The notes beneath the pieces were generated by a model that worked only from the letters and a program-made list of their open reading frames with translations, searched no databases and had not been told where the DNA came from. Positions 6,463-25,747 of a stretch of 26,964 nt of DNA are shown in pieces (within the stretch, counting starts at the first letter, position 1; every line of letters begins with the position of its first letter). A program made the translations under genes and the position numbers. This DNA is from a virus: positions 1-26,964 of IMG/VR virus record IMGVR_UViG_3300048837_000803. One strand, 5' to 3'.

Positions 6463-6494
6463 ATAATATAAATACTTATTGAAAAATTTAAAAC
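6463..6494 (-). promoter_or_regulatory. Motif-A promoter candidate
   Basis: Minus strand: GTTTTAAA (6487-6494), 16 bases, TATATTAT (6463-6470). It is preceded by an A/T tract (AAAAAATA). It overlaps the last codon of the SLOG gene and drives the DUF932 gene starting at 6427. Confidence 0.65.
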
Positions 6495-6847
6495 TATTTT
6501 TTGAAATTTACCAATATATATTTTTTATTATTTTTTCTACAATAATCAATATTAAATTTAGACCCTTTACTTTCTCCGTCCCAAAAAATTATATTCAAGT
6601 CAGATTCTTCTATAATTTCTTTATTTCTAACAACTCCCGCACCTCTCCCAAATTTCTCCCATTCTGGTAAAATCTCTTTTAAAATAATATTATTATCTAT
6701 ACAATATTTCTTAATTAGAGAATCTATACCCTTTGCTCCACCCGATATAAAAGTTATATCTGAATACTCATTTATAATAGTACTCAACTGTAAGTGAAAC
6801 CAATTATAGTCGTTAATAGAACGAGATCCTGTTATAGATATATTCAT
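6494..6847 (-). CDS. SLOG/DUF2493-type nucleotide-binding protein
   Basis: A 117-residue single-domain Rossmann-like SLOG protein (DUF2493/YspA group, related to DprA). Diagnostic elements are ITGSRS at residues 5-10, the phosphate-binding loop SGGAKGIDSL (about 35-44), and GRGAGVVRNKEII (about 67-79) with the conserved RN pair. Members are thought to bind nucleotides or ADP-ribose-like ligands, and relatives act as sensors or hydrolases in anti-phage and stress systems. The start MNISITGS is chosen because AAGGAG lies six bases upstream; an upstream in-frame ATG would begin inside the promoter motif. A motif-A promoter is at 6866-6897. Confidence 0.75.
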   Translation of the reverse strand: MNISITGSRSINDYNWFHLQLSTIINEYSDITFISGGAKGIDSLIKKYCIDNNIILKEILPEWEKFGRGAGVVRNKEIIEESDLNIIFWDGESKGSKFNIDYCRKNNKKYILVNFKK

Positions 6848-6865
6848 AGTCAACTCCTTATAATT

Positions 6866-6897
6866 ATATAATAAGTAATTACAAAAGAAATTAAAAC
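6866..6897 (-). promoter_or_regulatory. Motif-A promoter candidate
   Basis: Minus strand: GTTTTAAT (6890-6897), 16 bases, TATTATAT (6866-6873), preceded by AAAAATA. It lies 19 bases upstream of the SLOG gene start at 6847, which implies a very short leader. A weaker, less well spaced copy lies near 6953-6980. Confidence 0.55.
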
Positions 6898-7018
6898 TAT
6901 TTTTCAAATTATTTAAATTTTATCTTATTATAATTTTTATAATAGTCTCAATATAATATACTTATTAAAATTAAATCAACTTTTTTCTCTAAAAATAGTA
7001 AAAAAATTTGATTGTTCC

Positions 7019-7291: not shown

Positions 7292-7483
7292 TTAATCTTT
7301 AAATGTACCTTCTGCTTTTAATTCATCAAGTACATATTCTTGATCTCCGTCAGAAAGTTTTTTAAATTCTTTATCTTTCTTTACATCTTTAAATGATCCA
7401 TATTGAGCTTTAAATTCTCCTATAAGTTCATTAAGATCTTTTTTATTTGCTTCTTCAAATTTATGCGGTGTATATCTTTTCAT
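7292..7483 (-). CDS. Small protein with MKRYT N-terminus (63 aa)
   Basis: A 63-residue, highly charged, helical protein. Its first residues, MKRYTPHKFEEANKK, match the N-termini of the genes at 7490-7855 and 24989-25747. That pattern (MK.Y, then a hydrophobic-x-E-A step) is reminiscent of the T4 capsid-targeting sequence that directs internal proteins into the prohead and is clipped after (L/I)xE. The rest shows an EF/helical repeat-like LSDGDQEYVLDEL but no family I can name. It lies six bases after the next MKRYT gene and ends at the shared terminator. Confidence 0.55.
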   Translation of the reverse strand: MKRYTPHKFEEANKKDLNELIGEFKAQYGSFKDVKKDKEFKKLSDGDQEYVLDELKAEGTFKD

Positions 7484-7489
7484 CTATTA

Positions 7490-7855
7490 TTACCTCAATT
7501 TTATCTTATATTCATGTTTTGATGGGAATACAGAAGAACCTATTATATTTATATCGGATATAGATTCTTTAGCATTAGAATTTATTACAATAATACCATT
7601 TATACAATCTTTACCTTGATAAGTTCCTTTAAACGTTTGTTTACTTGTAACATTTGAAATAAATGCTAATCCATCAACTTCTACTTTTGTTTCTCCTATA
7701 ATAATATTAAATTTGGAAATATCTTTAGTTCCTGTTAAATCTGTGTATACATCGAATATCATTGATTTAAAATAGGAAAGACCCTTCTTAATATAATCAT
7801 CTTTATAATACATATACTCTTCTGCTTCACTTATCTGTCTTGTATACCTTTTCAT
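7490..7855 (-). CDS. Possible capsid-interior protein with MKRYT N-terminus
   Basis: A 121-residue protein starting MKRYTRQISEAEEY. The first ten residues fit a capsid-targeting-like leader with a potential cleavage point after ISE. The mature part is predicted mixed alpha/beta with many beta-prone stretches (FNIIIGETKVEVDG, GTYQGKDCINGIIVIN) and no catalytic motif I recognise. It follows the pyrimidine-dimer glycosylase/homing-endonuclease locus, and its upstream gap holds an ATACTAAT motif (7884-7891). A packaged internal protein is a hypothesis from the N-terminus only. Confidence 0.5.
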   Translation of the reverse strand: MKRYTRQISEAEEYMYYKDDYIKKGLSYFKSMIFDVYTDLTGTKDISKFNIIIGETKVEVDGLAFISNVTSKQTFKGTYQGKDCINGIIVINSNAKESISDINIIGSSVFPSKHEYKIKLR

Positions 7856-9486: not shown

Positions 9487-10293
9487 TTAAATTTTTTCAA
9501 TTAAATCTAGAGTTCTCTTTTCAAACTTTTCAGGAAATTCTTTAGAATATTTTAAAATGAAAGGCATCATTTCTTCTCTCGTTTCTTCTGAATAATAGTC
9601 ATCATTACCTACAGCACAGTTTACAAAATCATAAACGAAAGTTTTTCCAAATTCAGTATCAAGAGGATGTGTGTCATATTCTTCTGTAAATCCACATTCT
9701 CCAAATACAGCCCATCTTTTAATACACTGTATACAAGCACCACATTTATTTGTAGTTCCGTCATGACAACTACGAGTACTTATCAAGTCTGATTTAGACA
9801 ACCCATTATTCAATGCCCATCTAACTTCTTCTAATTTATTTAGTTTTAAATCAGCTAATGGAAATTTAACTTTAATAGGAGAGAAATGTTTAAATGGTCC
9901 TAACACATAATTAATAGTTTGATTCAAATAATTAAGAAATGTATAATTTTTGTCAGTTCCCTTTTCGTGTGTTTCTCCGTGTAATGTCCCCATCCATATT
10001 TCATCAGGTAATTCTTGACAAGCTAGAAGTACACCAAAAACTAAATTTCTACCGGGAATCATTATAGCCCCTTCACGTCTTCCTGGTTGAGCTACTGGAC
10101 CATTGGACTCATCAAGCCAATCTACCTTTTTTATTTTTACAAAATCAGGTAGATTTTCCATTTCCCTTTTAGCTACAGGTTGTCCATGATCATAATAAAT
10201 AGCTATTACTTCATCATTAGGATAATTAGTTTTAGCCATATGATACATAATATAAGAATCTAATCCTCCACTATATAATACCGCTATGTTCAT
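9487..10293 (-). CDS. queC: 7-cyano-7-deazaguanine (preQ0) synthase QueC
   Basis: A 268-residue ATP-dependent enzyme converting 7-carboxy-7-deazaguanine plus ammonia to preQ0. It has the PP-loop SGGLDS (8-13), the family motif IPGRN (79-83) and the C-terminal zinc site C176, then C184, C187 and C190 (CGACIQC). Slightly longer than typical QueC (about 220-240) because of the C-terminal extension. AAGGAG precedes the ATG, and the start overlaps the HAD stop as ATGA. With FolE, QueD and QueE all present here, the phage has the whole GTP-to-preQ0 route. It is the last gene of the unit and is followed by a terminator. Confidence 0.9.
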   Translation of the reverse strand: MNIAVLYSGGLDSYIMYHMAKTNYPNDEVIAIYYDHGQPVAKREMENLPDFVKIKKVDWLDESNGPVAQPGRREGAIMIPGRNLVFGVLLACQELPDEIWMGTLHGETHEKGTDKNYTFLNYLNQTINYVLGPFKHFSPIKVKFPLADLKLNKLEEVRWALNNGLSKSDLISTRSCHDGTTNKCGACIQCIKRWAVFGECGFTEEYDTHPLDTEFGKTFVYDFVNCAVGNDDYYSEETREEMMPFILKYSKEFPEKFEKRTLDLIEKI

Positions 10294-10676
10294 TTGAATT
10301 CTCCTTGCCTATTATTCTCTTTATCCTTTAAATTATGTTTAATATGGACAATTGGAATATCTACATATTTTTTTATCTGCTCAATTTGTATCTCATCGTC
10401 CTCATAAATACAAACAATATTCTTTCCTTCTGCTAATAACATCTGTAAAGTTTTTCCTTTATGAATTCCAGAGCTTTCTCTGGTTTTTTCATCGTAAGGA
10501 ATAGTATTGAAATATACCTTATTTGTTATTCCCTTATGACTTAACATCTCTAATGTTTCTTGTTCTTCTTCATAAGAACGACCTGTAATAATTATGTCTT
10601 CAGGATAGGGGCGAATGCCCTGTATATCCTTAGTCATAAAAATTACTCCATCAATATCAAAAATCTGTATAGCCAT
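10290..10676 (-). CDS. Small HAD-superfamily phosphatase
   Basis: A 128-residue minimal HAD hydrolase without a cap domain. All four motifs are visible: DIDGV (7-11, nucleophile D7, acid D9), ITGRS (30-34), K73 in HKGKTL, and the metal pair D93/D94 in YEDDEIQ. Such cap-less phage HADs act on phosphorylated nucleic-acid ends, nucleotides or small metabolites. It lies between the inositol-phosphate synthase and queC, overlapping queC by four bases and following ino1 by one base. Dephosphorylation of the ino1 product is therefore an attractive but unproven role; a polynucleotide 3'-phosphatase is the alternative. Confidence 0.75.
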   Translation of the reverse strand: MAIQIFDIDGVIFMTKDIQGIRPYPEDIIITGRSYEEEQETLEMLSHKGITNKVYFNTIPYDEKTRESSGIHKGKTLQMLLAEGKNIVCIYEDDEIQIEQIKKYVDIPIVHIKHNLKDKENNRQGEFK

Positions 10677-10677
10677 A

Positions 10678-11802
10678 TTATTTCACTTGTCCTTTTGTTA
10701 TATCTGTAAATTGTCTTTTTGCTAACATTTCACATTCATGTAAAGCATCTCTATACATCATTTGTTGTGGAGGAGTTTTTTGTGTCCAAGCAGATGGTCC
10801 TCTTAATGCACCAACAATTCCCATTTCTCTCGCTACTTTTAAATATCTAATAGCATCAATAACTACACCAGCTGAATTTTCTGAATCTTGTACAGACAAT
10901 TTACAGTCTATTTCAATTGGAGCTCCTCCAAAAGAATCCAATTCCAATCTTAGATAAGCAACTTTATTATCTTTTAGATAAGGAATAAAACTAGATGGTC
11001 CTGCAAAGAGAGAATCTTTTTCTACAACAATATTTCTCAAATCATTCTGTGATCTAATTACATTTTCTTTTGAAATCTTCTTAGTTTTAATTCTTGTCGA
11101 ATCCATCATATTAGCAAAATCGGTATTACCACCTACATTTAATTGTTGATGGAATTTAACTCTACAACCTCTATCATAGGCTAACTCTTGAAGAACTTGT
11201 GAGAGTACACTTGCTCCTAATTGTGACCGCATATCGTCTCCAATAATAGGAAGACCCCGATCAATAAACTTTCTCTCCCATATTGGATTAGATGCAATAA
11301 ATATAGGCATACAATTTACTACAGCTACTTTTGCTTCCAAAGCACATTCCATATAGAATTCAGTGGCTACTTGAGAACCAACTGGAAGATAATTTAAAAG
11401 TACATCAACCTTCTTATTTTTTAACTCTTCAACTATTTTTTCTTTTGTATCTTCCTCAGCATTAGAAGGATGAAAATTTATATCACTGTGAAAATCTAAC
11501 ATATGATTAGCTATTCCATCAAGTCTCTTCCCCATTCTAACGGTACAGTTATCATCTATCTGAGTATGAAAAAATCTACAACAATTAGGTTTTGCAAATA
11601 TTGCTTGATCTAGAGATTGTCCAACCTTTCTAACATCTACATCCCAAGCAGCTACAAATTTAATATCTCCAATTTTATACCCCCCAATAGAAGCGAACAT
11701 CAACCCAGGTACATTCTCATTCTTTTTTTGTTTGTAGAAATTTACACCCTGCACAAGTGAAGAGGCACAATTACCTACACCTATAATAGCAACATTTATC
11801 AT
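10678..11802 (-). CDS. ino1: Inositol-3-phosphate synthase family protein
   Basis: A 374-residue NAD-dependent synthase of the family turning glucose 6-phosphate into myo-inositol phosphate. The length and domain order match the bacterial/archaeal class (about 360-390). Visible elements: a Rossmann loop (IIGVGNCASS, 6-15), GDDMRSQLGAS (188-198), the family-defining NVGGNTDF (222-229) followed by a Lys-rich active-site segment (KTKKISK, 239-245), and a C-terminal LDSFGGAPIEIDCKLSVQDS (288-307) leading into the second Rossmann helix. It is unusual for a phage and sits inside the 7-deazaguanine cluster with a dedicated motif-A promoter (11822-11853). Its product may feed the HAD enzyme next door and a DNA or lipid modification. 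Confidence 0.85.
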   Translation of the reverse strand: MINVAIIGVGNCASSLVQGVNFYKQKKNENVPGLMFASIGGYKIGDIKFVAAWDVDVRKVGQSLDQAIFAKPNCCRFFHTQIDDNCTVRMGKRLDGIANHMLDFHSDINFHPSNAEEDTKEKIVEELKNKKVDVLLNYLPVGSQVATEFYMECALEAKVAVVNCMPIFIASNPIWERKFIDRGLPIIGDDMRSQLGASVLSQVLQELAYDRGCRVKFHQQLNVGGNTDFANMMDSTRIKTKKISKENVIRSQNDLRNIVVEKDSLFAGPSSFIPYLKDNKVAYLRLELDSFGGAPIEIDCKLSVQDSENSAGVVIDAIRYLKVAREMGIVGALRGPSAWTQKTPPQQMMYRDALHECEMLAKRQFTDITKGQVK

Positions 11803-13750: not shown

Positions 13751-14050
13751 TTATTTGGGCCAATAACCTTTTTCAATATAAGTTATTTGATCTCTATCTC
13801 CTTTAGTAGATATCTCCATAAGTGAAAGAAATTCTCCCGGTAGACATTCATATGCTACTTTATAATAGTTAGCCATAACTTTAGCGTCATTTCTATGCCA
13901 ACCTTCTCCTTCCTTTATAAACTCTTTAAGTGATTTTGTTACTTCTGCTTCTGAGGCTCCATTTGCTATAGTGTAGATGCTCATCATAAAATAAAATTTC
14001 AAACTCTGTATTACTTCATAATCTGTTTTCATCTGTGTCTTATTAGCCAT
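13751..14050 (-). CDS. Hypothetical helical protein in deazaguanine cluster (99 aa)
   Basis: A 99-residue all-helical protein. An aromatic, hydrophobic helix (SLKFYFMMSIYTIANG, about 16-31) is followed by an amphipathic helix, WHRNDAKVMANYYKVAYE (about 51-68), and a short polar tail. No family recognised. It is the first gene of the folE-dpdA-parB unit and has its own motif-A promoter with an inverted repeat over it (14080-14122), so it may be an accessory or regulatory subunit for the pathway. AGGAG lies ten bases before ATG. Confidence 0.55.
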   Translation of the reverse strand: MANKTQMKTDYEVIQSLKFYFMMSIYTIANGASEAEVTKSLKEFIKEGEGWHRNDAKVMANYYKVAYECLPGEFLSLMEISTKGDRDQITYIEKGYWPK

Positions 14051-14079
14051 TCGTTCTCTTTCTCCTAGATTTTATTTTT

Positions 14080-14115
14080 ATTCTACTCTTATAGTATAAA
14101 TAATAAGAGTAGAAT
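14080..14115. repeat. Inverted repeat overlapping a promoter (possible operator)
   Basis: A 13-bp perfect inverted repeat, ATTCTACTCTTAT (14080-14092) and its complement (14103-14115), with a 10-base centre. It brackets the -10-like element of the motif-A promoter, so a dimeric regulator could bind here. A terminator for queD is the alternative, as the arms are followed by a T-rich run on the minus strand. A shorter version (TCTAC...GTAGA) brackets the promoter near 24182. Confidence 0.6.
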
Positions 14116-14122
14116 TTCAAAC
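14091..14122 (-). promoter_or_regulatory. Motif-A promoter for the folE-dpdA unit
   Basis: Minus strand: GTTTGAAA (14115-14122), 16 bases, TATACTAT (14091-14098), preceded by AAAAAATA. It lies about 41 bases upstream of the ATG at 14050. Confidence 0.6.
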
Positions 14123-14130
14123 TATTTTTT

Positions 14131-14565
14131 CTAAAGTTCAGCTATTGCTACACTTTTATTGTTTTCGAAAACTTCAATTTTATACATCTCTACTCCTGTA
14201 TCTTTATATAAAGAAGGAGCGATAGTTCCTAAGAGATAAATAGCCATATTTTCTGCTGTTGGATTATAAGGCATTTCATATGTTTTAAAAGACTTATTCT
14301 GAAACATACCTTTTATTTCTTCATCGTCTTTATGATATAGAGTTCCATGATCCCAATTATCATCAATCCATTGACCGATACCTTTTTTAATAGCATTAAA
14401 GTCAATAACCATTCCCAGTGAGTCAAGAGGATATTCCTTATTCATACTCCTAAAATATACCCAGACTTGTTGATTGTGTCCGTGAATATTACAACACTTG
14501 CCATCATATTGATAAAGTCTATGAGCATATTCAAAATCTAATTGTTTTTTTATACTTACTTGCAT
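14131..14565 (-). CDS. queD: 6-carboxy-tetrahydropterin synthase QueD
   Basis: A 144-residue enzyme converting dihydroneopterin triphosphate to 6-carboxy-tetrahydropterin, the second step to preQ0. It has zinc ligands H15 (FEYAHRL), H28 and H30 (NIHGHN), a catalytic Cys in the CC pair at 24-25, MVIDF (52-56), the catalytic WDHG (71-74), NPTAEN (101-106) and the terminal EVFEN glutamates (131-134). Normal length for the family. AAGGAG precedes ATG. It follows queE by ten bases in the same unit. Confidence 0.92.
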   Translation of the reverse strand: MQVSIKKQLDFEYAHRLYQYDGKCCNIHGHNQQVWVYFRSMNKEYPLDSLGMVIDFNAIKKGIGQWIDDNWDHGTLYHKDDEEIKGMFQNKSFKTYEMPYNPTAENMAIYLLGTIAPSLYKDTGVEMYKIEVFENNKSVAIAEL

Positions 14566-14575
14566 CGAAATCTCC

Positions 14576-15259
14576 TTAAACTAATTTCTTATTGTCAAAC
14601 ATTAGGACGTGCAACCTTGGAGAAAAATTAAAATTATATTCATTACATTTATCAATTAAAAATTGACATTGGTCTTGAATTTCATTTACATGTGTACCTA
14701 TAGGCATAAGATATATTCTCTCATTAGGTATACAATATTTTTCTTGAAACTCTTTTATATTAGTATAATTGTTTTCCCAATCATCCTTGTTAACTACTAT
14801 TTTAGCTATCCAATTTACAGGTAGATGATTAAAGGCATTCCAATCCTCTATATTAGTAGCTCCCTGTAATGCTCCTATCTTAGGACTAAAACTAAAGTAA
14901 ACATGATCAAAATTTCTAAAATCATACCAACTAGTATCTCCCGCATCCTCTACTTGGAATTTGAAATTTGAACATATTCTAAATAACTCATATAAAAATT
15001 CTTTATAGAGAGACGGTGCTCCTCCAGTAATCATCACATAATCAAAATGTCTTTTACCTCTTTCAATATTTATACAATCTCTCAACTCTTCTACGGTGTA
15101 TGTAATATCACTCTCTCTTTTCCAGCTATGTTTTGAATCGCAATCTCTACATAGTACATTACAACCTGCTACACGAAATAGTAGCATCTTTTTTCCTATT
15201 AGGTTTCCTTCACCCTGAATTACTCGATGTGGTGGTTCTGCTAGTAATAGTTTATTCAA
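14576..15259 (-). CDS. queE: 7-carboxy-7-deazaguanine synthase QueE
   Basis: A 227-residue radical-SAM enzyme contracting 6-carboxy-tetrahydropterin to 7-carboxy-7-deazaguanine. It has the 4Fe-4S motif C33-x3-C37-x2-C40 in VAGCNVLCRDCDS, the N-terminal VIQGEG, TGGAPSLY (78-85) in place of the usual TGGEP-like motif, SFSPK, and the C-terminal SPRLHVLMF typical of QueE. The Glu-to-Ala change in the GGE motif is a variation that occurs at a SAM-contact position. The start codon is TTG with AAGGAG seven bases upstream. It has a motif-A promoter (15277-15308) and is followed directly by queD. Confidence 0.9.
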   Translation of the reverse strand: MNKLLLAEPPHRVIQGEGNLIGKKMLLFRVAGCNVLCRDCDSKHSWKRESDITYTVEELRDCINIERGKRHFDYVMITGGAPSLYKEFLYELFRICSNFKFQVEDAGDTSWYDFRNFDHVYFSFSPKIGALQGATNIEDWNAFNHLPVNWIAKIVVNKDDWENNYTNIKEFQEKYCIPNERIYLMPIGTHVNEIQDQCQFLIDKCNEYNFNFSPRLHVLMFDNKKLV

Positions 15260-15276
15260 TTTATTCTCCTTATTAT

Positions 15277-15308
15277 ATAATATATAATTTATTACTGAAA
15301 AGTTAAAC
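15277..15308 (-). promoter_or_regulatory. Motif-A promoter for queE-queD
   Basis: Minus strand: GTTTAACT (15301-15308), 16 bases, TATATTAT (15277-15284). It is located between the ART-like gene and the queE start at 15259. The first box is the least conserved of the set. Confidence 0.5.
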
Positions 15309-15313
15309 TTTTT

Positions 15314-15757
15314 TTAAAATTCCGGCCATTCTTTTTTACTTTTCAATCTTTTCATCTCTACATTTTTTGGATATTCAACTTGTAATCTCTCAGGAGAAAT
15401 TTTATTCAATATAACTATTTCGTCATCAATATATAAATCAGCTCCTTTTATTTTATCTATTTCTAATAAGATAAAACTAAATACGATAGGTTTCTCTCCA
15501 TCTGAAGCTTCTCTTCCAAATTCCATAGCTAATGATTTTTTAGTAGAAACATATAATTCTTTAGGTAACTGTTGTAATTGCTTTTCGCGCTCTTCTATGT
15601 CATCTATACGAGAAACTAACCAAGAATTAGGATTAGGTTTTAAACCAAATTGTGCTATGCTTTGAGCTAAATAAGGAGAAGTGCCATGATATACCTTTAT
15701 ACCAAATTTTATCTTTTTTTCTTCTTTATATAGTATCTTATATTTATATTTCTTCAT
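15314..15757 (-). CDS. Possible ADP-ribosyltransferase-fold protein
   Basis: A 147-residue protein with an ART-like H-Y-E arrangement: YHGTS (23-27), a 'L..SIAQFGLKPNP' loop, LYVSTKKSLAMEFG (68-81), and DDEIVIL (111-117), where H24, Y69 and E113 would be the NAD-binding triad. This layout is seen in small phage and bacterial ADP-ribosyltransferases and RNA 2'-phosphotransferase relatives. It could modify host RNA polymerase, another protein, or nucleic acid. The assignment rests on motif order only. Its ATG follows the stop of the broken gene upstream with no gap (TAA ATG), implying coupling, and no strong ribosome site is seen. Confidence 0.5.
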   Translation of the reverse strand: MKKYKYKILYKEEKKIKFGIKVYHGTSPYLAQSIAQFGLKPNPNSWLVSRIDDIEEREKQLQQLPKELYVSTKKSLAMEFGREASDGEKPIVFSFILLEIDKIKGADLYIDDEIVILNKISPERLQVEYPKNVEMKRLKSKKEWPEF

Positions 15758-16049
15758 TTATATCTCTATATTAAAAATATTTTTTCCTGCACAGTTAACA
15801 ATTATGTAATTTTTTGATTTATATTTCCACGATACAAATATTCTATCAACTATTGATACTATATTATCACTACCTACTATAAAATCAATATAATCCTCAG
15901 TGGCTTCTATTTTACAATTTTTTTAATCTTGCTATTTTTGCTGGAATAATATTACTATCAATAGATACATATTCAGCTTTAGAGTATTTAGATAATTCTT
16001 GCACTAACGATTCCCATCCATTATTTTCTACAAATTTTGATTTATACAT
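15758..16049 (-). pseudogene. Frameshifted small gene (about 96 aa if restored)
   Basis: Starting from ATG at 16047-16049, with a good GAGGTGAT ribosome site, the frame runs 45 codons to TAA at 15912-15914. Just before it, a run of seven A (T on the plus strand, 15918-15924) is followed in another frame by 50 further sense codons that end exactly at the next gene's ATG (TAA at 15758-15760). Removing one A restores a single protein of about 96 residues, ending in a beta-rich segment (YIIVNCAGKNIF). It is a homopolymer mutation, a sequencing slip or a slippage-expressed gene. Function unknown; the restored product has no family I recognise. Confidence 0.65.
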
Positions 16050-16071
16050 TATAATCACCTCTCAAATATAC

Positions 16072-16088
16072 TATATATATATATATAT
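16072..16088. repeat. TA dinucleotide tract
   Basis: A 17-base alternating TA run between the polymerase stop and the frameshifted gene. It directly borders an ATACTAAT motif (16087-16094) and may be a melting or slippage-prone site. Confidence 0.8.
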
Positions 16089-16094
16089 TAGTAT

Positions 16095-18656
16095 CTAAAA
16101 TTCATGTAGATTTTTTTCAGTTACTTCTTTTGAGAAGCCCCACACACTACCCATTTCAACCTCACACTGAAGCGGAATATTAAATGAAGTATAATCCTCC
16201 ATAGCATTTTTAATTATATAATACATCTGTTCTACTTCTGATTTATGAATATACATTACTATAGAATCATGTACCATACCAACTATAATAGATTTAAGAT
16301 TATTTTTTACAATCTCTTTATCTATTTCTATCATAGCTTTATACATAATAAGAGCTTCAAAGGTTTGAACAGTCGAATTAACTGCTATATTCTCATAATG
16401 CGCCCTTTCCTTACTATTACTTGGTTCAGTAACATCGGAGAACATCATTAAAGGAAGATGCCTTCTCCCCCCAAGAGGACAATCTCTATATCCTAATTGC
16501 TGTGCCTCTTTAATACAGCTACTAATCCACTTTTCTAATCCAGGATATGTTTCAAAAAATTTATTCCTTATATCTGTTGCTACTGTTAAAAATAAATCTT
16601 GTCTACCTCCTCTATCAGTAATTGGAGTAAGTTTATTTTCTTTTATATAATCAGCTATTTCATCTAATGTCCAACTTTCTTCTAAATCAGACTTAAAGCT
16701 AAACGAGCCTCTTCCGAACAGGAAGCCAAAATTAATCCCCTTTGCTTTAAATCTAAAAGTTTTATATGGTTCTTCACCTTTTTTAGAAATAAAATCTTCT
16801 AGTGATATATTTCGTGCGAATACCCCCCTCGCGGTGATGCTGTGCATGTCTCCACCACGATTAATAAATATATCTTTCATTACTTCATCACCAGAATAAA
16901 TAGCACCAATCCTTAATTGAAAACCAGATTGATCCGCCTCACAAATATAATAGTCATCAGGACATTTGAATATCTTTCTAGTCTTCTTTCCTGAGTCTCC
17001 ACTTTTTGGTATGTTTTGGAAATTGGGGTTTTGACTTGAAGCTCTAAATGAACTTGTTCTAGCAGGACTAAATGTAGGATGAATTACTCCATCTCTTATA
17101 TATTTAGCAAAGCCTTCTACTTTCTTTTCCTTTCTATCTCTCATAAGAAAATTATCTACTTTTTCTTCTGGAGCTGCTACTTCTCCAACAAAACTAGTTT
17201 TAAGTTTCATTAAGCCACGATAGTCTAATAGATCAGATGCTACATCGAATCCTTTTCTTTTCCAATATTCTAATTGTGCCTCACCAGTTTTATACCCACC
17301 ATCTTTCTTTCTCTCAACAGCTGGTAAACCTTTTTTCTCTAATGCTTCTCCTAATTGTTTATTAGAATTGATATCAAAAGATAATCCTAATTTTTCTTGT
17401 ATACTCTTTTCCTTCTCTAGAAGTTCCATTTCAATATCTGAATTAAGTTTATTAAGATAATCTATATCTATATCCATTCCTCTCATTTCTGCTTTAGTAA
17501 ATACGGGAATAACAGGAATAACATATTTTTTATAAGTATCATAAATCATCTGTTGTTTAGGAACTAATTCTTTTTCTAAATATTTCCATATTCTATATGT
17601 GGCTATTGCATCCATTCCAGCATAATGCATAAGTATCTTTTCTGGTATGTCTAAATAAGTTTCACAATTATACGCTTTCATTGCTTTATCTAGTTCATCA
17701 TCATACCCACCTAATCCAACTAGCCATGCTAATGTTTTCAAACCATTCTTTTGCCTCTCTGTATTTAGGAGGTGAGCTAGTATTGTAATATCTTCATCTA
17801 CTCTACTATTTTGTACTCCACTTCTTAACATCCCCTTCACATCATATTTACCATTAGCTGTAATTTGATATTTATTTGAGAAAAATTTACTAAGTAATCG
17901 TTTATCAGTAGTCTTATCAAAAGGAAGATAATATCCTTTTATTCCATCAAAAGAAATAGTTAAACAACCGACTCTGAAATTCTCATCAAAATGATTTAAG
18001 GATGAAGTCTCTGTGTCCCAAGCCATTTCACATTCTTCATTTAAGTATTGACGATAGAAATCATTTGGTTCATCAACTTTTATAATTTCATAAGGAGATA
18101 CTATAAATGGATTATAATTCCTCATATGTTCTTTTATAAATCCAATCTGCTTCATAACGAATCTACTTTGGAAACTATCTTTTTTAATCCATTCACTTAA
18201 ACATGGAACAGGATACACTCTTTTTTCTTTATGAATAAAGAAAGTATCATTAAATAAAAATTCAGAGAAGTCCCCCCAATATTGGAAATTATCCCCCTGA
18301 ATTAAATAAGAAAGAGTTCTGCCTACTGCTATAACTGTCTTATATTTCAATTTATCCAAATCTACACAAGCACAATGATTGTATACCTGATAAGCAGGAG
18401 AAGGTAGTTCAAAAGTATTAGTTCTACATAAACAAGTAGAATGAATTTGATAGCTATCCAACCCCTTACTATCTAGATATGTTATAAAATCTTTTAGCAT
18501 TGTATCGTATTCAACCATATCTACAAGAATAAGAATATCTCCAGTACCTTTCGTATACCAGAGAGAACTCTTAGCTTTAAAATTTATATCTAGTTCTTTA
18601 ACACGACATTGTGTACACTTATTTATAGCTTTCTTTTTTAGAAAAGAATCTGTCAT
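16095..18656 (-). CDS. A-family DNA polymerase with UDG-like N-domain
   Basis: An 853-residue replicative polymerase. Residues 1-180 resemble the Fe-S uracil-DNA glycosylase superfamily: CTQC (14-17) and Cys at 75, 77, 95 and 97, then VIAVGRTLSYLI (108-119). The catalytic GEAPG-like motif is not evident, so the domain is probably structural or DNA-binding. Next comes the 3'-5' exonuclease (DTE at 214-216, NGKYDVKG at 268-275, HYAGMDA at 344-350). Polymerase motif A is EADQSGFQLR (573-582), where the usual Glu is Gln; motif B is RFKAKGINFGFLFG (635-648), with Phe in place of E. coli Pol I Tyr766; motif C is VHDS (795-798). There is no 5' nuclease domain; the exonuclease at 2482-3444 supplies it. 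AGGAG precedes the ATG. Confidence 0.88.
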   Translation of the reverse strand: MTDSFLKKKAINKCTQCRVKELDINFKAKSSLWYTKGTGDILILVDMVEYDTMLKDFITYLDSKGLDSYQIHSTCLCRTNTFELPSPAYQVYNHCACVDLDKLKYKTVIAVGRTLSYLIQGDNFQYWGDFSEFLFNDTFFIHKEKRVYPVPCLSEWIKKDSFQSRFVMKQIGFIKEHMRNYNPFIVSPYEIIKVDEPNDFYRQYLNEECEMAWDTETSSLNHFDENFRVGCLTISFDGIKGYYLPFDKTTDKRLLSKFFSNKYQITANGKYDVKGMLRSGVQNSRVDEDITILAHLLNTERQKNGLKTLAWLVGLGGYDDELDKAMKAYNCETYLDIPEKILMHYAGMDAIATYRIWKYLEKELVPKQQMIYDTYKKYVIPVIPVFTKAEMRGMDIDIDYLNKLNSDIEMELLEKEKSIQEKLGLSFDINSNKQLGEALEKKGLPAVERKKDGGYKTGEAQLEYWKRKGFDVASDLLDYRGLMKLKTSFVGEVAAPEEKVDNFLMRDRKEKKVEGFAKYIRDGVIHPTFSPARTSSFRASSQNPNFQNIPKSGDSGKKTRKIFKCPDDYYICEADQSGFQLRIGAIYSGDEVMKDIFINRGGDMHSITARGVFARNISLEDFISKKGEEPYKTFRFKAKGINFGFLFGRGSFSFKSDLEESWTLDEIADYIKENKLTPITDRGGRQDLFLTVATDIRNKFFETYPGLEKWISSCIKEAQQLGYRDCPLGGRRHLPLMMFSDVTEPSNSKERAHYENIAVNSTVQTFEALIMYKAMIEIDKEIVKNNLKSIIVGMVHDSIVMYIHKSEVEQMYYIIKNAMEDYTSFNIPLQCEVEMGSVWGFSKEVTEKNLHEF

Positions 18657-18665
18657 CTATATCTC

Positions 18666-18953
18666 CTAATTACTTTTTGATACTCTTTTAGTATATCCTT
18701 TATTTGTACGTGGTTCTTTACCAGTCAACTCTGTAAATTCTTTTTCAAATGTAGATCTATCTAATTTACCTGATTTCAATTTATAACGTAAAGAACATTT
18801 TCGTAGGATAACTTTACTATTCGCTACATAATATTGGTCGACATACTGAATTTGATGTTTCTTACAATGATCTTGTAACCCAGAAGGTTTATGTTTATTT
18901 AAATGAAATTTTGACTCTGGTAAATCTTTCCCACAAGTAATACAATAATGCAT
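18666..18953 (-). CDS. Treble-clef zinc-finger protein (95 aa)
   Basis: A 95-residue basic protein with CITCGKDLPESKF (4-16) and HCKKH (29-33), a CxxC...CxxxH arrangement typical of phage treble-clef proteins and HNH-like fragments, followed by a long Lys/Arg-rich tail. It probably binds DNA or RNA. No nuclease catalytic motif is seen, so I do not call it a nuclease. AAGGAG-type site upstream, a motif-A promoter at 18974-19005, and it directly precedes the polymerase. Confidence 0.55.
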   Translation of the reverse strand: MHYCITCGKDLPESKFHLNKHKPSGLQDHCKKHQIQYVDQYYVANSKVILRKCSLRYKLKSGKLDRSTFEKEFTELTGKEPRTNKGYTKRVSKSN

Positions 18954-18973
18954 ATCTTTCTCCTTTTATTTTT

Positions 18974-19005
18974 TAATAATAAATAAATATTTAAGAATTT
19001 AAAAC
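18974..19005 (-). promoter_or_regulatory. Motif-A promoter for the zinc protein and polymerase
   Basis: Minus strand: GTTTTAAA (18998-19005), 16 bases, TATTATTA (18974-18981). It overlaps the last codons of thyX and drives the zinc-finger gene and the DNA polymerase. Confidence 0.6.
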
Positions 19006-22611: not shown

Positions 22612-22631
22612 CCCTTGCCTAAAGGTAAGGG
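22612..22631. repeat. Right-end hairpin of the IS element
   Basis: A 20-base imperfect palindrome (CCCTT-x-CC-TTTA-GG-x-AAGGG on the minus strand). It overlaps the tnpB stop codon at 22619-22621, as is common where the guide-RNA scaffold runs to the element end. Confidence 0.7.
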
Positions 22632-23854
22632 ATTCTTGCTTCATCGAGCTTGTTAACAACCAAGTCATCTCCACAAGCGTAAATTCCCGTAATTCCTACG
22701 GTACTGATATTTAATTTTTCTTTAGCAAAATTCATCAAATTGATCCCAGCATTTTGATCTCTCAAATGATGATTATTACAAATAGGGCAATTCCATTCCC
22801 TATCAGAAAGAGTTAGTTCGACATTTTTATAACCGCAAACATTACACATCTTTGAGGATGCATAATACTTCTCGGCAAACACAAGATGTTTCCCTTTCCA
22901 TTCACACTTATACTCAAGCATATTTGTAAAAGAACCCCAAGCGTTGTCAAGAGTTGATTTACCAAGATTTAAACATTGACTCATTGCTTGCATGTTCAAA
23001 GTTTCAATTCCAATAACATCATAGTTTTCTACAAGAAATGTAGAAAGTTTTTGGTGAAAATCTTTTCTTGAATTTACTATTTTCTCATGCACTCTTGCAA
23101 CTTTGATTCTTTGCTTGTTTCGATTGTTTGAGCCTTTGACTTTTCTTGAAAGTCTTCTTTGTTCTTTTGCTAACTTCTTTTCATACTTACGATAGAATCT
23201 TGGATAACCGCCGACTTTGTTTTCACTGTCTGTAAAAAGATTCTTAGAATCATAATCTAAACCGATGCATTTTGATTGATATGAAACTCGATGGATGTTA
23301 GTTTCAATAGTTTCCTCAACTAATATGCATGCAAAATACTTTCCAGTAGAAGTCTTTTCTACTGTTACATTTTTAATTATTCCTTCAAATGTTCTATTAT
23401 CAGAATACCTCAACCATTTTAATTTAGGTAATTTTAATCTTTTATTTTCAAAAACAATATCAATATTATTATTAACATTTATTGTTCTGAATGTTTGTCT
23501 TGATTCTCGCTTTGACTTGAATTTAGGATAAGAGATTTTTCTGCCTTTTCTTTTTCCAGTTATAGAATCAAAGAAATTTTTATATGCAGTTTCAAGATCA
23601 ACCCTTGCTTGTTGCAGAGCAATAGAATCCACATCAGAAAGCCAATCAAACTCTTTCTTATATTGCTTTTCAGTTTGGTATTTAAATGCCTTTAGAGCAA
23701 CTTTGTCATCTTTTAGTTTTTCATACGTTTCTTTTCTTTCAGCGAGCATATGATTGAATACAAAACGAGTACACCCGAAAGTCTTGTTCAAAAGAGTTTC
23801 TTGTGTTTTATTAGGATATAACCTAAATTTGTATGTTTTGTAAATCTTTCTCAT
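22619..23854 (-). CDS. tnpB: TnpB RNA-guided nuclease
   Basis: A 411-residue IS605 TnpB with all catalytic parts intact: N-terminal YKFRLYPNKTQ (8-18), the RuvC acids D200 (GLDYD), E284 (GIETLNM) and D366 (HLRDQNAGINL), and a four-Cys zinc finger (C337, C340, C356, C359). Family length (about 370-410). TnpB uses a guide RNA made from the element's right end to cut DNA next to a short motif, keeping the element in the population. The start lacks a ribosome site and is ATG after TACTAATATATT. Its base composition is close to that of the neighbouring phage genes, so the element may have resided here for some time. Confidence 0.9.
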   Translation of the reverse strand: MRKIYKTYKFRLYPNKTQETLLNKTFGCTRFVFNHMLAERKETYEKLKDDKVALKAFKYQTEKQYKKEFDWLSDVDSIALQQARVDLETAYKNFFDSITGKRKGRKISYPKFKSKRESRQTFRTINVNNNIDIVFENKRLKLPKLKWLRYSDNRTFEGIIKNVTVEKTSTGKYFACILVEETIETNIHRVSYQSKCIGLDYDSKNLFTDSENKVGGYPRFYRKYEKKLAKEQRRLSRKVKGSNNRNKQRIKVARVHEKIVNSRKDFHQKLSTFLVENYDVIGIETLNMQAMSQCLNLGKSTLDNAWGSFTNMLEYKCEWKGKHLVFAEKYYASSKMCNVCGYKNVELTLSDREWNCPICNNHHLRDQNAGINLMNFAKEKLNISTVGITGIYACGDDLVVNKLDEARIPYL

Positions 23855-24988: not shown

Positions 24989-25747
24989 TTAGTAAACTCC
25001 CATTACATTTAATCTGATGTTTCCTTTCAGATATTCATAAATATATTTTATTAACTGATTTACAACAGTGGTATTTCTATAATATTTTAAATATATTTCT
25101 TCATAGATCATACAATGATATTCAGGGTGTTTTCCAGTATCTTTTATATACTCAAGAATATCTCGGTCATTAGCTCCCTGAAATCTGAGCTCTTCTATAA
25201 TTTGCCAAGCATAAGACATTACTTCTGCTTTATCTGCAAAATAACCTACTTCAGTTTGATACTTAGGTGAATTATTGTATCTATTTATTTTAATCTGATT
25301 ACGATAATTCTCAACAGAAATAAATTGACTTCTATGTATTAGCTCGTGTCCTATAAGTTGCTTAAATGAACTTAGAAATTCCAATTGAAAATCTCTATCT
25401 ATAAATAATTTTTCAATAGAAGGACTACAATATATAACTATATCAAGAGTTTTGCTGCCTATAACCATTACATTTATTCCAGTGGCGTCTCCATCATTAA
25501 AGGAATGTCCAGAATAATCAAATCCAATATTAAACTCTCTGAATTGTTCACTTAAATAAATTACTAATTTTTCATTATATTTAAACTTTTTACCTGAATT
25601 AGTTTTAATAATAGTCTTCATTTGATTATATAAAATATCTACATATTTATCGGGTCGATAAACAGCTTCAATTAGCGAAGTTATCCCCCGACTCGACCGA
25701 GTAAATTCTTTTTCAGTATCTTCGATTTTTCTTTTATATCGTTTCAT
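24989..25747 (-). CDS. HExxH zinc metalloprotease with MKRYK N-terminus
   Basis: A 252-residue protein. GHELIHRSQF (133-142) contains the HExxH zinc motif (H134, E135, H138); a downstream glutamate in FADKAEVMSYAW (E175) fits the third ligand of a gluzincin-like site. The start, MKRYKRKIEDTEKE, matches the leader of the two small genes at 7.3-7.9 kb and recalls capsid-targeting sequences. If so, this could be a protease carried in the head and injected, but it may equally act in the infected cell. The start is coupled to the upstream gene (TAA AATG). There is no signal peptide. It is followed by a strong terminator. Confidence 0.6.
   Translation of the reverse strand: MKRYKRKIEDTEKEFTRSSRGITSLIEAVYRPDKYVDILYNQMKTIIKTNSGKKFKYNEKLVIYLSEQFREFNIGFDYSGHSFNDGDATGINVMVIGSKTLDIVIYCSPSIEKLFIDRDFQLEFLSSFKQLIGHELIHRSQFISVENYRNQIKINRYNNSPKYQTEVGYFADKAEVMSYAWQIIEELRFQGANDRDILEYIKDTGKHPEYHCMIYEEIYLKYYRNTTVVNQLIKYIYEYLKGNIRLNVMGVY

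What the first reader, a model, noticed from the sequence alone, without database searches (positions are those of the whole stretch)
15314..15757. ADP-ribosyltransferase-like protein directly ahead of the modification genes
HGTS, LYVST and DDEIVI occur in the order and spacing of the H-Y-E triad of ART folds. Phage ARTs such as T4 ModA and Alt reprogram host RNA polymerase, and this gene lies next to the phage-specific promoter motifs, so a transcription role is possible. Another option is nucleic-acid ADP-ribosylation linked to DNA modification.
Basis: inference. Interest (0 to 1): 0.55.

Follow-up and report, generated by a model that had tools for sequence, protein, structure and literature searches.

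The report
Small phage ADP-ribosyltransferase-like protein
The gene most likely encodes a small enzyme that sticks ADP-ribose (from NAD) onto some molecule of the infected bacterium; such enzymes are common in large phages, and its place beside DNA-modification genes is probably incidental.

Summary
The reading frame exists (147 aa, minus strand, 15314-15757; H24, Y69, E113 as stated). No family library names it, but it is a real member of the phage ART-like (ADP-ribosyltransferase) proteins. A profile built without it, from the part AFTER the YHGTS...GLKP motif used to collect relatives, scores it 23.1 bits; the best of 2000 shuffles scores 9.5. A profile of 26 relatives plus the protein finds KptA/Tpt1, DarT1, diphtheria toxin and Arr in the PDB. 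An AlphaFold2 model from that alignment (mean pLDDT 63; residues 21-100 good) matches KptA, DarT1, PARPs and ART toxins. Single-sequence folding failed. H24 and Y69 hold up. E113 does not stand out: relatives have D at column 111 (25 of 26) and D at 113 (20 of 26, E in none), so the run D111-D112-E113 is the candidate third motif, like the D-E pair of AcrIF11 (PMC12421852). The Alt/ModA comparison fails at clade level. Linkage to 7-deazaguanine genes is not conserved. Best reading: an infection-time mono-ADP-ribosyltransferase with an unknown target. New member of a known kind.

The parts
15314..15757 (-). ART-like protein, 147 aa (P0001), stop codon included
   Evidence: ART profile hit
15686..15688 (-). 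codon of H24, motif 1 (YHGTS)
15551..15553 (-). codon of Y69, motif 2 (LYVST)
15419..15427 (-). codons of D111-D112-E113, acidic motif 3
   Evidence: column counts
15758..16058 (-). small upstream reading frame, split between two frames (48 aa piece 15912-16058; second piece, 53 aa, ends at 15758 directly before the ART start codon); possible partner gene, no significant relative found
16086..16093 (-). TACTAATA, weak promoter-like word ahead of the two-gene unit
   Evidence: post hoc
14576..15259 (-). queE-like radical SAM gene, next gene downstream (context, not claimed as part of the function)

Best explanation
The gene encodes a stand-alone ADP-ribosyltransferase domain of the H-Y-[EDQ] type (PARP / p0068-like side of the superfamily). 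Shown: membership of the phage ART-like proteins by profile, and a model whose reliable part (residues 21-100) matches ART folds. Inferred: NAD+ is held by H24 and Y69, the acidic run D111-D112-E113 activates the ribosyl transfer, and the enzyme attaches one ADP-ribose to a host (or defence-system) macromolecule. Inferred from position among polA, thyX, dut and the que genes: it is made inside the infected cell early or mid infection, not delivered from the head like Alt. The target is unknown; a host protein is the likeliest class, a defence protein as for AcrIF11 being one concrete option. Rough odds: ART fold 0.95, NAD+-dependent transferase activity 0.7, protein target given activity 0.6.
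For: Post-motif profile test 23.1 bits against 9.5 at most in 2000 shuffles, 55 unselected tails; 18.7 against 8.4 with 31 picked tails, next best of 7264 ORFs 7.2. Domain profile without the query: E 2.7e-13. PDB profile search with A5: best hits KptA (1.5e-5, on the H motif), DarT1 (0.0042, profile 3-69), then diphtheria toxin and, outside the H motif, rifampin ADP-ribosyl transferase (0.5, profile 20-69). Model: the 18 best Foldseek PDB hits are all KptA/Tpt1, then DarT1 and PARP13 (E 0.013 upwards, none under 0.001); VIA Z up to 8.8 with Tpt1 (rmsd 2.3, 83 aligned), 5.2 DarT1, 4.8 PARP10 and PARP13; the viral library is topped by PARP-like and phage G proteins. The nearest annotated protein, KVP40.0290, weakly matches Pfam PARP (1.3e-4, under the curated cut-off). 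Conserved columns: Y/F69 26 of 26, A77 24 of 26, D111 25 of 26.
Against: No Pfam, NCBIfam, PADLOC or direct PDB match; PHROG matches weak (0.0092 and 0.079). The model depends on an alignment collected by an ART motif, so its fold is not independent of that choice; alone the protein does not fold in AlphaFold2 (pLDDT 32.9). Third catalytic residue unsettled. No activity, substrate or expression data here. Some ART-fold proteins are inactive.
Confidence: 0.62

Rival explanations
1. Toxin of a two-gene unit: the small frame that ends at the ART start codon is (or was) its antitoxin, as Dmd is proposed to be for p0068-family ARTs; the pair guards the infected cell against other phages.
For: The stop of the small frame abuts the ART ATG. 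In phage JS98 the small ART gene (phrog_2110) is followed directly by dmd (name it), and PMC9503650 section 3.7.1 proposes p0068 ART plus Dmd as a toxin-antitoxin pair.
Against: The small frame is split, lies upstream rather than downstream, and neither piece matches Dmd or anything significant. If it were a working antitoxin, its loss should be harmful.
Confidence: 0.13
2. Nucleic-acid ADP-ribosyltransferase tied to the 7-deazaguanine DNA modification next door.
For: Adjacency to queE; KVP40-type phages also have an ART-like gene about 2 kb from queE; DarT1 among the profile and fold matches.
Against: None of the other 109 ART loci hold que, folE, dpdA-like or ino1 genes by tblastn at 1e-3 (distant relatives could be missed), and six records with ino1 plus que genes show no ART (fragments).
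Confidence: 0.08
3. RNA 2'-phosphotransferase of the KptA/Tpt1 type (RNA repair).
For: KptA is the best sequence-profile and structure match.
Against: The motif starts near residue 23 instead of about 92-119 as in the KptA chains, so the N-terminal RNA lobe is missing; motif 2 has Y where the H-H-h clade has H (clade definition from PMC9503650; position recalled).
Confidence: 0.05
4. Inactive ART-fold remnant or binding domain.
For: Diverged sequence, atypical third motif, low model confidence at the C end.
Against: H, Y and three acidic residues kept; ORF intact.
Confidence: 0.12

Closest known systems
KVP40.0290 and relatives (phrog_11974), annotated PARP-like in one Vibrio phage
   Same: Same YHGTS-x10-GLKPN block (38% over residues 23-75, E 6e-3), V/L-F/Y-x-T motif, L-x-x-D-x-D motif
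   Different: 372 aa with an N-terminal half absent here and a long insert before the last strand; no E at position 113
Small T4-type ART family, phrog_2110 (probably the p0068 family of PMC9503650, inferred from its dmd neighbour)
   Same: About 100-110 aa stand-alone, YHG[ST], [VL][FY][FV]T, K-G-A block before the last strand
   Different: Only about 22-29% identity; shorter spacing; most members have W or other residues where the query has E113
AcrIF11, phage ART anti-CRISPR
   Same: Small stand-alone phage ART; adjacent acidic D-E pair as third motif, H and Y/F as first two (PMC12421852, passages read)
   Different: No sequence or fold match to it was returned here; target in this phage unknown
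KptA/Tpt1 RNA 2'-phosphotransferase
   Same: Best solved-structure match of the ART lobe
   Different: Query lacks the N-terminal RNA lobe; Y instead of H in motif 2
T4 Alt, ModA, ModB
   Same: Phage ARTs; possible general role in host take-over
   Different: R-S-E clade; this protein has the H-Y motifs

Membership tests
ART superfamily, H-Y-[EDQ] clade | H in first strand motif (hHG[TS]) | tested here: met
   H24 in YHGTS; 26 of 26 relatives, but most were collected by this motif
ART superfamily, H-Y-[EDQ] clade | Y (or F) in second motif, hYh[ST] | tested here: met
   Y69; Y 20, F 6 of 26 relatives, not selected for
ART superfamily, H-Y-[EDQ] clade | E, D or Q as third catalytic residue | tested here: inconclusive
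   D111, D112, E113 all acidic; which aligns with the catalytic position is not settled
ART superfamily, H-Y-[EDQ] clade | ART fold | tested here: met
   Model from alignment A5 matches ART folds at the top of every list, moderate confidence
ART superfamily, H-Y-[EDQ] clade | NAD+-dependent ADP-ribose transfer | not testable with these tools
   needs a bench assay
p0068 / phrog_2110 small phage ARTs | Profile match to the family | tested here: not met
   phrog_2110 is not among the PHROG matches up to E 1, although the aligned C-terminal block resembles it
KptA/Tpt1 | N-terminal RNA-binding lobe | tested here: not met
   only 22 residues precede YHGTS; about 91 or more precede the match in KptA chains
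KptA/Tpt1 | H in second motif (H-H-h) | tested here: not met
   Y69; position of the second H recalled
T4 Alt/Mod (R-S-E clade) | R-S-E active-site profile | tested here: not met
   first motif is H-based; clade definition from PMC9503650
DarT | DarT profile or fold match | tested here: inconclusive
   DarT1 8baq: profile E 0.0042, VIA Z 5.2, rmsd 4.7 over 119; no DarT family among the Pfam or PADLOC matches
AcrIF11 | ADP-ribosylation of Csy1 | not testable with these tools
   needs a bench assay

The most novel reading that the evidence does not exclude
A counter-defence ART: a minimal, stand-alone phage enzyme with an H-Y-DDE active site that ADP-ribosylates one specific host defence protein (or nucleic acid) early in infection, complementing the DNA-modification genes beside it as a second layer of protection.
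Probability: 0.15. Interest if true: 0.55.

Novelty: new member of a known kind. Interest (0 to 1): 0.3.

Why it matters
It adds a very diverged stand-alone ART that no family library recognises, and it shows that a conserved D-[DE]-[DE] run, rather than a lone E, marks the third motif in many phage ART-like proteins. That corrects which residues to mutate. If active it could be a counter-defence or host-takeover enzyme in a phage that probably also modifies its DNA.

Tried and rejected
Direct searches with the protein: Pfam, NCBIfam, PADLOC and PDB gave nothing of note; plasmids none; viral contigs and genome contigs with its own peptides none; phages only 32 Vibrio phage records up to E 10. 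Alignment A1 in viral contigs returned only two KVP40-type loci again. AlphaFold2 on the single sequence failed. The search for related loci with queE and polA of the window found no relatives.

DNA-modification role: tested by neighbourhood and set low. Transcription role: no evidence found; the promoter word is weak and post hoc; sigma-70-type sites at 14000-19000 are no more frequent than in shuffles (27 found, mean 30.4).

Head packaging: the N-terminus MKKYKYKI resembles three other window proteins starting MKRY, but shows no clear cleavage motif to my eye; left as inconclusive.

Papers: of PMC9503650 I read the outline, passages and sections 3.3.1 and 3.7.1; of PMC12421852 and PMC9025141 passages; others were seen only in search listings. 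I did not see this protein or its DDE motif in the listings of seven paper searches, which cover open-licence papers only and were not aimed at the motif itself.

Selection: 102 stretches came from one motif pattern and 15 from a second, giving 111 hits in 110 loci. I picked 28 of these by eye for the 31-relative alignment (the other three rows are P0005, P0006, L180) and 25 plus L180 for A5, dropping L083, L113 and L167, whose motifs differ. One search repeats the tail test with 55 non-redundant tails (of 84 distinct tails of 60 aa or more) chosen without looking.

Full report
What is there. The window is a 26,964-base IMG/VR virus record. Upstream on the same strand lies polA (16095-18656); downstream, after 54 bases, queE, then queD, folE, a dpdA-like gene, a ParB-like gene, ino1, a small phosphatase-like gene and queC. 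No other ORF of 40 aa or more in the window matches the ART profile.

Is it an ART? Libraries do not recognise it; PHROG gives weak matches to phrog_11974 (0.0092) and phrog_13493 (0.079). tblastn of phage genomes finds only Vibrio phages of the KVP40 type, 38% over residues 23-75; their protein KVP40.0290 weakly matches Pfam PARP (1.3e-4, below the curated cut-off), and it is weakly cross-matched with the small T4-type family phrog_2110, whose members some annotators call ADP-ribosyl transferases. I collected diverged relatives from viral contigs by the DNA of YHGTS-x10-GLKP (102 stretches) and a second form (15 stretches): 111 hits in 110 loci. Because the motif selects them, I tested only the sequence after it. 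A profile of 55 non-redundant tails, none hand-picked and without the query, gives the query's tail 23.1 bits; 2000 shuffles reach at most 9.5. With 31 picked relatives it is 18.7 against 8.4, and the next best of 7264 ORFs scores 7.2. Single pairwise alignments are not significant: 33 of 300 shuffles reach the best one, though none reaches the mean over targets. The alignment A5 (query plus 26 relatives) as a profile against the PDB lists 23 sequences up to E 10: KptA/Tpt1, DarT1, diphtheria toxin, Arr and cholix toxin, and two unrelated entries at E 0.2 and 0.86; the KptA hits rest on the H motif, whereas Arr matches outside it.

Structure. Alone the protein does not fold in AlphaFold2 (pLDDT 32.9). 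With A5 the mean is 63.0 and pTM 0.55, good for residues 21-100 on the whole and poor for 1-17 and 113-147. The best 18 Foldseek hits in the PDB are KptA/Tpt1, then DarT1 and PARP13; none is under E 0.001. VIA-align gives Tpt1 Z 8.8 (rmsd 2.3 over 83), DarT1 5.2, PARP10 4.8; its note warns that Z under 8 may mean only a common arrangement. Viral models: a PARP-like phage protein, phage G proteins, the Vibrio phage nt-1 protein. Since the model was driven by the alignment, this supports the reading but is not independent proof.

Active site. H24 and Y69 are supported. The third residue is not simply E113: among 26 relatives column 111 is D in 25 and E in 1, column 112 is E in 17, column 113 is D in 20, N in 3 and E in none. 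The motif is roughly L-x-x-D-[DEY]-[DEN]. AcrIF11, a phage ART, uses an adjacent D-E pair with H and Y/F (PMC12421852, passages), so D111-D112-E113 as a group is the sensible target for mutation. In an alternative reading of the alignment with the small family member P0005, E113 lies near an E; the question is open.

Which kind? PMC9503650 (sections 3.3.1 and 3.7.1 read) sorts ARTs into H-H-h, H-Y-[EDQ] and R-S-E clades and counts PART and p0068-like ARTs among the most frequent viral ones; Alt and Mod are R-S-E. The query goes with H-Y-[EDQ]. It is not KptA: the N-terminal lobe is missing and motif 2 has Y. It does not pass the profile test for phrog_2110, so I do not file it in that family.

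Context. Of 112 ART loci, tblastn with que, folE, dpdA-like, ParB and ino1 queries finds only queE, in three loci of two KVP40-type phages. Of 12 records searched with the A5 profile (the window's own plus 11 with ino1), the window and one 389-kb record match. So the neighbourhood is not conserved, and a role in base modification has no support beyond adjacency. The gene sits among replication and nucleotide genes, which suggests expression during infection; this is inference. A small frame ends exactly at the ART start codon but is split between two frames and has no significant relative; it could be the relic of a partner, as Dmd is proposed to be for p0068 ARTs.

Verdict. A real, very diverged phage ART-like protein; probably an active mono-ADP-ribosyltransferase with an unknown target; ordinary as a kind, useful as a correction of the third motif.

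Noticed in passing
10290-11802 (minus): Inositol-phosphate synthase followed by a small phosphatase/kinase-like gene (phrog_415, 7.3e-12); a relative of the second gene lies within the held flank of 48 of 50 viral ino1 loci, a conserved phage pair of unknown use.
   Followed up: partly
6494-6907 (minus): YspA-type SLOG protein (PF10686, 36.9 bits, cut-off 28.2); SLOG domains are discussed as part of viral NAD/ADP-ribose networks in PMC9503650.
   Followed up: no
15758-16058 (minus): Small gene split between two reading frames, ending directly at the ART start codon.
   Followed up: partly
7292-7483, 7490-7855, 24989-25747 (minus): Three proteins share an MKRY[TK] N-terminus, and the ART starts MKKYK; possibly a shared leader such as a head-targeting tag (the idea of a tag is recalled, not tested).
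   Followed up: no
22619-23854 (minus): IS605 OrfB/TnpB-type gene with a Cas12f1-like TNB domain in the phage record.
   Followed up: no
window, mostly minus strand: TACTAATA occurs 10 times (3.3 expected), 9 on the coding strand and several just upstream of genes; candidate phage promoter element.
   Followed up: partly
L182 979-1893: A 389-kb ino1-bearing phage record has an ART domain behind an N-terminus that looks head-targeted (MSSFRQFLLEA), unlike the window's protein.
   Followed up: no
L180 3887-4318: A phrog_2110-type small ART-like gene in a Patescibacteria MAG contig of 463 kb.
   Followed up: no
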